NCBI RefSeq assembly: GCF_003003995.1
Contig: NZ_PVWF01000008.1
Span: 1-64,000, forward strand
Source: Pleurocapsa sp. CCALA 161
GTDB lineage: Bacteria; Cyanobacteriota; Cyanobacteriia; Cyanobacteriales; Xenococcaceae
Direction of reading: 5' to 3'
Length of the DNA stretch: 64,000 nucleotides
A model generated the notes under the pieces. That model saw nothing but the letters and a program-made list of their open reading frames with translations. It did not search any database and had not been told where the DNA came from. A program made the position numbers and the translations under genes. Numbering within the stretch: position 1 is the first letter of the stretch; each line of letters opens with the position of its first letter. Positions 21,526-27,801 of this stretch are shown here, piece after piece.

Positions 21526-21880
21526 GGGGCTGTGGCTCAGTTGGATAGAGCAAGTGCCTCCTGAAACATCGGGCATAATGAGGGAAACTTCATTAATGAA
21601 TGTGGTCAAATTCAAGGAAGCCTAAAGTTGTTAACGAGTTTGTTGACGACCAAGGTAATCTTGAGCCAAGCTTTATAGTTCCTGGTAAAGAAGGTGCAGA
21701 GACTGGTTGCAGATATAAAAGCAGGGAAGAGCAATTTTAGGTCTAGTTACTAGAACTGTCTGCAACATAACGGCCACCACCTAAAGGTATTTTGCCCAAG
21801 GTGAAGGGATAGTCCAGAGAGTAGGGAAACCTACACCAATCTGAAGCGCTAGGTCGCCAGTTCAAATCTGGCCAGTCCCG
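21526..21880 (+). tRNA. tRNA-Arg(CCU) interrupted by a group I intron
   Basis: The exons are 21526-21562 and 21844-21880. They fold into a full cloverleaf. The acceptor stem is GGGGCTG with CAGTCCC (one G-U). The D-stem is GCTC/GAGC, the anticodon stem AGTGC/GCGCT and the T-stem GCCAG/CTGGC around TTCAAAT. The anticodon CCT (21560-21562) is the last triplet of the 5' exon, so the intron sits directly after anticodon position 36. The 3' CCA is not encoded. It lies in the gap between psaK and hemJ. Confidence 0.92.
21563..21843 (+). ncRNA. Group I intron (IC3-like), 281 nt, no ORF
   Basis: The intron follows an exonic T and ends in G, as group I introns do. Core blocks resemble the Azoarcus and cyanobacterial tRNA introns: GTCAAATTCAAGGAAGCCTA (P3/P4 side), GGTAATCTTGAGCCAAGC (P5/P6 side), GCAGAGACTGG (P3'/P7), and GAAGGGATAGTCC (P7') followed by a GTAGGGAAACCTAC hairpin (P9). 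GGGA at 21582-21585 can pair with the exon end TCCT as a short P1. The peripheral stem GTTGCAGA/TCTGCAAC encloses about 50 nt. No homing endonuclease frame is present. Self-splicing is expected from the family but is not shown here. Confidence 0.88.
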
Positions 21881-25987: not shown

Positions 25988-26074
25988 TTAAATTGTATTA
26001 TTGCTAAAAATTTTTAACCCAACAAATCCAACTAACACAACGAAACCTAGCATCCTGCGAAAATAATTAACCCC
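25988..26074 (-). pseudogene. 3' fragment of a small membrane-protein gene split by the IsrB element
   Basis: Read on the minus strand, this encodes 28 codons beginning GVNYFRRMLGFVV and ending in TAA. It continues in frame from the 5' fragment at 27601-27801. Joined, the two give a 95-aa protein with ...WAWLELFQ-GVNYFRRMLG... across the junction. The element lies exactly between the halves. The other bases in 25842-25987 show only a few heptamer-like GTAGTAG/GTAGGTAG bases. Confidence 0.8.
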
Positions 26075-26455
26075 GTCAATAACCCACTCATGACGCTTTG
26101 CGTACATGAGGGGCATGAAACTAATCAGAGTTTCTGAGAATTGCACTACTACATGAGCTATTGCTTTTTACAGACTGCCAGATTCTTCTCTTGTCTGGTC
26201 TATCTCTAAACCTGCTGATTACAGGTGCTTTAAGACAGGACATGATAGCAATAGTGTAGGAAGAGACAAACAACTATTATTAGGGGTTATACCCAATGAC
26301 AAACACCCTCGACAGTCGCTCCACTTGGGCAAAGAAGGCGCGTTTTGGTCGTGGGGGAGGCTGGGGGAACCCCAGCATCTCCAACCACGGCGTTGGGTCA
26401 GAAGATTCTGTCCCCAAAAGCCGCCGCCCCAAGACCGCGCTGTCTCGCAAAATTA
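26055..26455 (+). ncRNA. Candidate omega RNA with 5' guide
   Basis: For IscB and IsrB the guide RNA lies upstream of the ORF, with the guide taken from the DNA just outside the left end. Here the ~20 nt before the element (26055-26074) would be the guide. Downstream are stable foldbacks: 26087-26110, 26117-26134 (GAAACT/AGTTTC), 26356-26382 (GGAGGCTGGGG/CCCCAGCATCTCC) and 26395-26414 (GGGTCAGAA/TTCTGTCCC). The last two lie inside the annotated start of the ORF. Exact ends are not determined. Confidence 0.6.
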
Positions 26456-27534
26456 GAGTACCAGTTTTATCGCCATTAGGCGAGGCGCTAATGCCTACAA
26501 CCAGCGTGAGAGCAAGGAAATGGATTGCTTCAAAAAAAGCCAAACCAGTGTGGAACGACTTAAATATCTTTTGTGTTCAGCTACTTGTAGAACCAAGTGG
26601 TACTGAAACTCAAGAAATAGTGGCTTCAATCGACCCAGGAAAGATGTTTAGTGGTATAGCAGCAGTCAGCAAAAAAGCTGTATTGTTTGCTGCTCATGTA
26701 GTTCTGCCATTCAAGCGGGTTATCGCTAGAAAACAAGCTCAAAAAATACTGCGTCGTGCCAGACGTGGTAGAAGAATAAATCGAAATATTCCTTTTGCTC
26801 AAAGAGCGCATAGACAAAAAAGATTCAATAACCGAAGAAATCATAAATTACCTCCATCAATTCGAGCCAACCGACAGCTAGAGCTAAGAATTATTCAAGA
26901 ACTAACCAAGCTTTTTCCCGTAACGGAAATAGTTTACGAATACGTTAAAGCACGAGGCAATAAAGGATTTAGTCCAGTTATGGTTGGTCAAAAATGGATG
27001 CTAAAACAATTATCTGACATTGCTCCTACCCATACTTTAGAAGGCTGGCAAACCAGTATTTTAAGGAAGCATTTAGGACTGAAAAAGAACAAAAATGACA
27101 AGTCTATCCAGGATGTAACGACTCACGGCAATGACGCAATTGCCCTCGGTGCGAGTAGGTTTGTTCAATATAAAGCGTTCCATACTTCTAATTCTCGCGG
27201 TCACCATTGGGTTGGTTCGATTCAACTAACTGATGCACCATTTAAAGTGATAGCTCGCCCTCAACTATATAGAAGACAGTTGCATTTTGAGAATCCACAA
27301 AAAGGTGGAATCAGAAAGCGTAAAGGTGGAACGGTTGCACCCTTTGGATTTAGAAGTGGTGATTTAGTTCAAGCCACCAAGGGTAAAAATACTGTCAAAG
27401 GATACATCGGAGGGTATTCAGAAAAGAATAAAGTTGTCAGTTTATATGAAGGTGTTACCTGGAAAAGATTAGGTCAATTCTCTGTCTCAAAAGCCAAATT
27501 ACTTAAGAGGTCAACTGGTCTGTGTATAACGTAA
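26296..27534 (+). CDS. isrB: IsrB-like RNA-guided RuvC protein (IscB family without HNH)
   Basis: The conserved protein starts at about residue 50 of this 412-aa frame. It has a PLMP-like motif (EALMP, 63-67), RuvC-I with Asp113 in SIDPGKMFSGIA, an Arg-rich bridge helix (~145-190), RuvC-II with Glu215 in IVYEYVKA, and RuvC-III with His277 and Asp280 in HGNDAIAL. Only ~60 residues separate RuvC-II and -III, so there is no HNH domain. That defines IsrB, an omega-RNA-guided nickase. The C-terminal FRSGDLVQATKGKN part fits the RNA/target-contacting region. The first ~48 codons coincide with hairpin-rich sequence likely to be omega RNA. The true start may be internal and non-ATG near 26440-26458, or ATG 26296 with AGGGG upstream. 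Confidence 0.85.
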   Translation: MTNTLDSRSTWAKKARFGRGGGWGNPSISNHGVGSEDSVPKSRRPKTALSRKIRVPVLSPLGEALMPTTSVRARKWIASKKAKPVWNDLNIFCVQLLVEPSGTETQEIVASIDPGKMFSGIAAVSKKAVLFAAHVVLPFKRVIARKQAQKILRRARRGRRINRNIPFAQRAHRQKRFNNRRNHKLPPSIRANRQLELRIIQELTKLFPVTEIVYEYVKARGNKGFSPVMVGQKWMLKQLSDIAPTHTLEGWQTSILRKHLGLKKNKNDKSIQDVTTHGNDAIALGASRFVQYKAFHTSNSRGHHWVGSIQLTDAPFKVIARPQLYRRQLHFENPQKGGIRKRKGGTVAPFGFRSGDLVQATKGKNTVKGYIGGYSEKNKVVSLYEGVTWKRLGQFSVSKAKLLKRSTGLCIT

Positions 27535-27538
27535 ACCC

Positions 27539-27596
27539 TGTCGGCGATTCCTCCCTCTCTTCGTCTAAAGACAGAAGAGGGGAATCCTCGCCGTTT
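27539..27596 (+). terminator. Right-end hairpin of the IsrB element / terminator
   Basis: CGGCGATTCCTCCCTCT pairs imperfectly with AGAGGGGAATCCTCGCCG around a small loop, followed by TTTTTTG. It starts a few bases after the IsrB stop. It probably serves both as the IS200/IS605-type right-end structure and as a transcription terminator. Confidence 0.75.
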
Positions 27597-27600
27597 TTTG

Positions 27601-27801
27601 TTGAAATAATTCAAGCCATGCCCAAGTAAACAAAGAGCCAAAAGCTATTAAGTCCAACCCTACATTGATCGAGCCACTGGTAAAAATCAGTGTTAGCAAA
27701 CTAGCTACACCCCAGATAATAATAGGTAAATTCGGTGGTTGAGCAATAACAATATTGCCATTGCTGTCACGGAAGATTTTATCGAACAACGTTTTTTCCA
27801 T
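27601..27801 (-). pseudogene. 5' fragment of a small membrane-protein gene split by the IsrB element
   Basis: The gene starts at ATG 27801 (MEKTLFDKIFRDSNGNIVIA) and encodes 67 native residues with two hydrophobic segments (~25-40 and ~45-64), ending WAWLELFQ at the element. The frame then reads 11 residues of element sequence (QKTARIPLFCL) before a stop at 27565. The truncated 78-aa product lacks the GVNYFRR tail found on the far side at 25988-26074. I recall intact homologues as short cyanobacterial membrane proteins of unknown function. Upstream in-frame ATGs at 27834 and 27852 are less likely starts. Confidence 0.78.

What the first reader, a model, noticed from the sequence alone, without database searches (positions are those of the whole stretch)
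26055..27604. IsrB element with reconstructable empty site, guide and TTGA adjacent motif
The element interrupts a gene whose two halves are both present, so its ends are fixed within a few bases: AACCCC at 26074 on the left, TTGAAATAAT at 27601 on the right. In the IscB/IsrB model the guide is copied from the left flank (26055-26074) and the target-adjacent motif is the right flank of the empty site. That flank begins TTGA, which matches the NTGA motif I recall for the characterised Desulfovirgula IsrB. The guide would thus recognise the empty allele, which supports a homing or maintenance role for the nickase.
Basis: partly seen in the sequence, partly recalled or inferred. Interest (0 to 1): 0.9.

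Follow-up and report, generated by a model that had tools for sequence, protein, structure and literature searches.

The report
Cyanobacterial IsrB element with confirmed empty site
A 1.5-kb mobile element in a Xenococcaceae-type cyanobacterium carries an RNA-guided DNA-nicking enzyme (IsrB) and its guide RNA, and relatives that still carry the uninterrupted gene show, to the base, that the guide matches the empty site next to the enzyme's expected TTGA motif; it is a well-supported new member of a known kind, while its relatives show an unexpected habit of sitting exactly on start codons.

Summary
Observation confirmed. The element is window 26075-27600 (1526 bp) and interrupts a small conserved gene on the other strand. 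Seventeen intact homologues align through the junction without gain or loss of a base (AAC[C/G/A]CC^TTGAAA in most); one congener has the exact 20-nt guide plus TTGA. The protein is an IsrB: best match DtIsrB by sequence (E 7.5e-43) and fold, catalytic residues intact, no HNH, purifying selection. The upstream RNA shows strong covariation and both IsrB pseudoknots. Of 132 copies with a placed right end, 128 have NTGA and 4 ATGG; the window lies in a clade of 30, all TTGA. All four ATGG copies carry R/K instead of Q at the residue reading the fourth TAM base, as DtIsrB mutagenesis predicts. Guide and TAM are thus well supported. Homing or retention is inferred only: no transposase lies beside any of 143 copies examined, and the window's protein has a 46-residue repeat insertion before its first domain. 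It is a new member of a known kind; cyanobacterial IsrBs have been assayed. Unexpected: ATGA-type relatives sit on start codons (54 of 72 non-disrupting insertions, against 28% of comparable sites).

The parts
26055..26074 (+). guide segment (20 nt of host sequence, left flank)
   Evidence: adjoins the first base of the covarying scaffold; exact target followed by TTGA in L078; length of 20 nt taken from DtIsrB (PMC9581776)
26075..26298 (+). omega RNA scaffold up to the isrB start codon; S1 = 26075-26080 with 26140-26146; adaptor pseudoknot 26122-26128 with 26215-26221; nexus pseudoknot 26187-26191 with 26262-26266
   Evidence: covariation in 11 copies
26296..27534 (+). isrB ORF, 412 aa; PLMP from about aa 53, RuvC D113, E215, H277, D280, TAM readers R391 and Q394
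26311..26448 (+). GC-rich dispersed repeat inserted in frame between the start codon and the PLMP domain
   Evidence: absent from close copies; related sequence at G000 C46:42855-42938; modelled as disordered
27543..27592 (+). right-end hairpin of the element
   Evidence: inverted repeat read in the sequence; a hairpin at the same place in other copies
26075..27600 (+). whole element, 1526 bp
   Evidence: empty sites in relatives
27601..27604 (+). TTGA, first bases of the right flank, the predicted TAM of the empty site
   Evidence: present in empty sites; TTGA in all 30 members of the clade
27601..27801 (-). 5' part of the interrupted gene (conserved small protein, no Pfam or NCBIfam match)
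25988..26074 (-). 3' part of the interrupted gene

Best explanation
This is a non-autonomous IS200/IS605-like element that encodes an IsrB nickase and its omega RNA. Shown by comparison: exact ends, an intact and conserved enzyme core, a covarying omega RNA that begins at the first base of the element, and an NTGA right flank (here TTGA). Inferred: transcription across the left junction gives an RNA whose 5' 20 nt are host sequence; IsrB with this RNA recognises left flank + TTGA, which exists only where the element is absent, and nicks the non-target strand there; after excision, or in sister chromosomes or incoming DNA lacking the element, repair from a copy with the element restores or spreads it. 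The occupied site has GTCA at the TAM position and is spared. Movement itself would need a Y1 transposase acting in trans.
For: Exact empty sites, one with a full guide match plus TTGA. DtIsrB is the best solved relative by sequence and fold; catalytic and TAM-reading residues conserved; dN/dS about 0.1 or less. Omega RNA: 25 of 42 pairs with both-side changes, 97.6% of cells paired against 29-40% for slid controls, both pseudoknots covary. NTGA in 128 of 132 placed right flanks; TTGA in all 30 members of the window's clade. R/K at the Q326 position in 4 of 4 ATGG copies, Q in 126 of 127 scorable NTGA copies. No other NTGA target within 2 mismatches in the own genome. CwIsrB and DsIsrB of cyanobacteria are active in vitro (PMC9581776). 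TnpB of the same transposon family drives insertion sequences through multicopy plasmids (PMC11870625).
Against: No expression or activity data for this copy. The 46-residue insertion ahead of the PLMP domain may impair it. No transposase encoded in or beside 143 copies. Most relatives' homologous sites have a mismatch three bases from the TAM. A nick is a weaker stimulus for repair than the double-strand cut of TnpB or IscB. The second copy in the genome has lost its right end.
Confidence: 0.75

Rival explanations
1. The family is active, but this copy is a disabled passenger: the repeat inserted into the start of isrB blocks the contact of the PLMP domain with the omega RNA, leaving an inert relic with tidy ends.
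For: 46-residue in-frame insertion of a dispersed repeat, absent from close copies, predicted disordered; no in-frame ATG, GTG or TTG between it and the PLMP motif, read from the sequence.
Against: Frame kept over the whole ORF; all active-site residues present; low dN/dS, although a recent loss would not show; L034 also carries extra residues there.
Confidence: 0.3
2. IsrB takes part in choosing the insertion site during transposition rather than in retention, which would explain why the insertion motif equals the TAM.
For: Insertion motif and TAM-reading residue covary; the motif follows the protein tree; no transposase beside the copies.
Against: A guide copied from the present flank cannot direct a move to an unrelated site, and left flanks of independent copies are unrelated. 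In IS200/IS605 elements the target motif is set by the element's own end sequences (general knowledge), which explains the link as well.
Confidence: 0.1
3. The RNP acts as a regulator that binds the junction or the promoter region and controls the element or the neighbouring gene, with nicking incidental.
For: Many relatives sit directly in front of a start codon.
Against: RuvC catalytic residues are invariant; the occupied site lacks the TAM, so binding there is not expected; the window's copy is inside a gene and antisense to it.
Confidence: 0.07

Closest known systems
DtIsrB-omega RNA of Desulfovirgula thermocuniculi (PDB 8dmb, PMC9581776)
   Same: PLMP, split RuvC, no HNH, TAM-interacting domain with the same R and Q; omega RNA with adaptor and nexus pseudoknots; TTGA/NTGA TAM
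   Different: about a third identical in sequence; the window's protein has a 46-residue insertion ahead of PLMP; its activity is untested
CwIsrB (Crocosphaera watsonii) and DsIsrB (Dolichospermum sp.), assayed in PMC9581776
   Same: cyanobacterial IsrBs; C. watsonii WH 8501 copies are 53-54% identical; same SL2-SL5 and SL4-3' strand pseudoknot arrangement as described for them; NTG TAM fits NTGA
   Different: C. watsonii copies belong with ATGA-flanked relatives, the window to the TTGA clade; which WH 8501 copy is CwIsrB was not checked
HEARO / IscB elements (RF02033; OgeuIscB, PDB 7utn)
   Same: guide from the left flank, TAM on the right flank, PLMP and RuvC core
   Different: IscB has an HNH domain and cuts both strands; the Rfam HEARO model does not match this RNA
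TnpB of IS200/IS605
   Same: transposon-borne RNA-guided nuclease aimed at the empty site
   Different: unrelated architecture (Cas12-like), guide taken from the other end, double-strand cut

Membership tests
IsrB (OMEGA nickase) | N-terminal PLMP domain, split RuvC with catalytic D, E, H, D | tested here: met
   PF14239; D113, E215, H277, D280 present and invariant where aligned
IsrB (OMEGA nickase) | no HNH domain, about 350-aa core | tested here: met
   about 63 residues between RuvC-II and RuvC-III; aa 53-409 align end to end with DtIsrB; fold match TMt 0.81
IsrB (OMEGA nickase) | upstream omega RNA with S1, SL2-SL5 adaptor pseudoknot and SL4-3' nexus pseudoknot | tested here: met
   against the description in PMC9581776
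IsrB (OMEGA nickase) | guide from the left flank, NTGA TAM on the right flank of the empty site | tested here: met
   by comparison only:
IsrB (OMEGA nickase) | RNA-guided nicking of the non-target strand | not testable with these tools
   needs biochemistry
IscB | HNH domain between RuvC-II and RuvC-III | tested here: not met
   no HNH match in Pfam; NF040563 guided_IscB scores 84.1 bits against a cut-off of 175
HEARO RNA (RF02033) | match to the Rfam covariance model | tested here: not met
   no match in the window, also at E up to 10
IS200/IS605 element | no target duplication, no long terminal inverted repeats, subterminal hairpins | tested here: met
   junction without duplication; hairpins at both ends, read in the sequence
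IS200/IS605 element | Y1 TnpA transposase encoded in the element or shown to act on it | tested here: inconclusive
   none beside 143 copies; four full-length Y1 TnpA genes elsewhere in the genome, with no shared ends found

The most novel reading that the evidence does not exclude
IsrB elements of the ATGA clades are start-codon-seeking: their insertion motif and TAM is the start codon plus A of housekeeping genes (metH, dapB, sufB, cphA and others), the gene stays readable from the element end, which in many copies carries a ribosome-binding-site-like motif, and IsrB is aimed at an allele whose TAM cannot easily be lost without harming the gene. The window's TTGA clade would be a side branch without this habit.
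Probability: 0.4. Interest if true: 0.78.

Novelty: new member of a known kind. Interest (0 to 1): 0.5.

Why it matters
The role of a nickase-type OMEGA system in the cell is open. This locus gives an exact natural guide, TAM, empty allele and a comparatively supported guide RNA, so the retention or homing idea can be tested directly. The natural Q-to-R/K change that goes with NTGA-to-NTGG flanks matches what mutagenesis of DtIsrB showed and ties the insertion motif to the TAM. The start-codon habit of related copies, if it holds up, would be a new way for such an element to be tolerated and kept.

Tried and rejected
Rfam HEARO model: no match to this RNA; among 20 related loci it only hit a separate element on the other strand of L066. 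Alignment A1 contained a second sequence that I had partly typed by hand; it was discarded and nothing rests on it. Shared ends between the element and the genome's own Y1 transposase loci: none found; a first transposase scan read the wrong strand and was repeated. Further targets or solo omega RNAs in the own genome: none convincing. Start-codon targeting for the window's own TTGA clade: 2 of 18 non-disrupting insertions, not enriched. Empty-site check of L187 against a congener: no alignable upstream sequence. Literature on the start-codon habit: nothing found in the papers held, but Altae-Tran 2021 and the original HEARO paper are not held; from memory, HEARO elements were reported next to ATGA or GTGA, so part of this may be known.

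Full report
OBSERVATION. The element at 26075-27600 splits a small conserved minus-strand gene. A search with the rejoined 86-aa protein found homologues in 22 of 60 genomes, and in the window's own genome only the two halves. Seventeen homologous loci align by DNA through the junction with no base gained or lost there; 12 read TTGA, 2 CTGA and 3 TTCA at the TAM position. In L078 (same genus) the 20-nt guide is exact and followed by TTGA. Seven other loci mismatch only at position -3 of the guide; additional mismatches lie mainly at every third position, as expected inside a gene. An independent copy, L046 in front of metH, has an equally exact empty site in a congener.

PROTEIN. The 412-aa ORF matches RRXRR (PF14239). 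Among solved structures DtIsrB is best by sequence (E 7.5e-43, aa 53-409) and by fold (E 6.5e-30). There is no HNH domain. D113, E215, H277 and D280 are invariant wherever aligned in 143 copies, and the TAM-reading R and Q of DtIsrB are present (KRLGQ, aa 390-394). Leaving out the N-terminus, dN is 0.12-0.18 and dS 1.4 or more against close relatives. Between the start codon and the PLMP domain lies a 138-bp in-frame repeat (26311-26448), absent from close copies and related to sequence elsewhere in the genome. No in-frame ATG, GTG or TTG follows it before the PLMP motif, so activity of this copy is uncertain.

RNA. From GTCAA at 26075 to the isrB start codon, eleven close copies share one structure: 36 of 61 predicted pairs have a change on both sides. 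With the two pseudoknots written in, 97.6% of cells pair and 25 of 42 pairs have both-side changes; slid controls pair 29-40%. The window's adaptor pseudoknot is TAATCAG-CTGATTA where most copies have CCCAG-CTGGG. The nexus pseudoknot varies as UCUCU-AGAGA, UCCCU-AGGGA and UUUCU-AGAAA. This is the arrangement described for DtIsrB, CwIsrB and DsIsrB (PMC9581776). In alignment A2 the SL2 loop of the window is shifted by a few columns, so its adaptor pairs are read.

FLANKS AND TAM. The protein occurs in 33 of 60 relatives and, at a stringent cut-off, in 88 of 293 genomes of the order. Homology between independent copies ends at NTGA; where that method failed, right ends were placed by eye at the NTGA after the terminal hairpin, which leans towards NTGA. 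Of 132 placed right ends, 96 are ATGA, 31 TTGA, 1 GTGA and 4 ATGG (L055 and L128, mis-set by the script, were corrected by inspection to ATGA and TTGA). The window lies in a clade of 30, all TTGA, with support 100. In all four ATGG copies the residue at the DtIsrB Q326 position is R or K; in 126 of 127 scorable NTGA copies it is Q (the exception, L037, has E). On the tree ATGG needs at least two changes, and one ATGG/R copy (L056) has an ATGA/Q sister (L059). In DtIsrB, Q326R gave activity on TTGG and ATGG (PMC9581776). L063 and L120 also have R, but their right ends could not be placed.

FUNCTION. In the own genome the guide has one exact copy, its own flank, followed by GTCA. The next hit has two mismatches and no NTGA. 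So the RNP would have a target only where the element is missing. That fits retention after excision, or spread among sister copies as shown for TnpB on multicopy plasmids (PMC11870625), but nothing here demonstrates it for IsrB. Polyploidy of many cyanobacteria, which would favour spread, is general knowledge and was not tested. No Y1 transposase like the four of this genome lies within the 143 IsrB loci (flanks mostly 1.5-2 kb), so movement in trans is assumed.

START CODONS. In ATGA-type copies the ATG is often the start of a downstream reading frame. Of 85 with both ends placed, 54 have at least 60 codons downstream and an in-frame stop close upstream in the reconstructed site, against 6% of ATGA sites nearby. 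Leaving out sites inside reading frames, it is 54 of 72 against 28% (p 1e-13). A Shine-Dalgarno-like motif lies in the last 16 nt of the element in 37 of 95 ATGA copies, most clearly in the clades that end AAGGAGTTTTTG before ATGA. Genes were named by eye from their N-termini (metH, dapB, argG, gshB, trx, cphA, sat, sufB). Copies are related, some insertions are shared by descent and frames were not annotated, so the p-value is only indicative. Target choice and selective survival cannot be told apart here. The window's TTGA clade does not share the habit (2 of 18).

VERDICT. An unusually well-documented IsrB element of a known kind.

Noticed in passing
L042, L046, L058, L122, L123, L135, L137, L153, L162, L166, L168 and others (right element ends): Relatives of the window's IsrB element sit exactly in front of an ATGA that is the start codon of a downstream gene, many with a Shine-Dalgarno-like motif at the element's right end: 54 of 72 non-disrupting ATGA insertions against 28% of comparable sites.
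   Followed up: partly
L052, L053, L056, L057: Copies with an ATGG right flank carry R or K where NTGA copies carry the TAM-reading Q: a natural counterpart of the DtIsrB Q326R mutant.
   Followed up: partly
window 21529-21879: A group I intron (RF00028, 76.9 bits, 21550-21836) lies inside what reads as a tRNA gene, apparently tRNA-Arg with a CCT anticodon; ARAGORN reports no tRNA here because of the intron.
   Followed up: partly
window 26311-26448; G000 C46:42855-42938: A GC-rich dispersed repeat is inserted in frame in the 5' end of isrB, with related pieces elsewhere in the genome and in relatives.
   Followed up: partly
L003 (G000 C46:10500-15500): The second IsrB copy of this genome (82% identical) has lost the right end of the element and has long insertions in its omega RNA.
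   Followed up: no
L066:3345-3559: A true HEARO RNA (RF02033, 94.7 bits) lies on the opposite strand just downstream of an IsrB element.
   Followed up: no
window 26075-26298 against L033-L040 and L072: The window and L072 share an omega RNA type that differs strongly in sequence from the other close copies although the proteins are about 80% identical; the pairing is kept by compensatory changes.
   Followed up: partly
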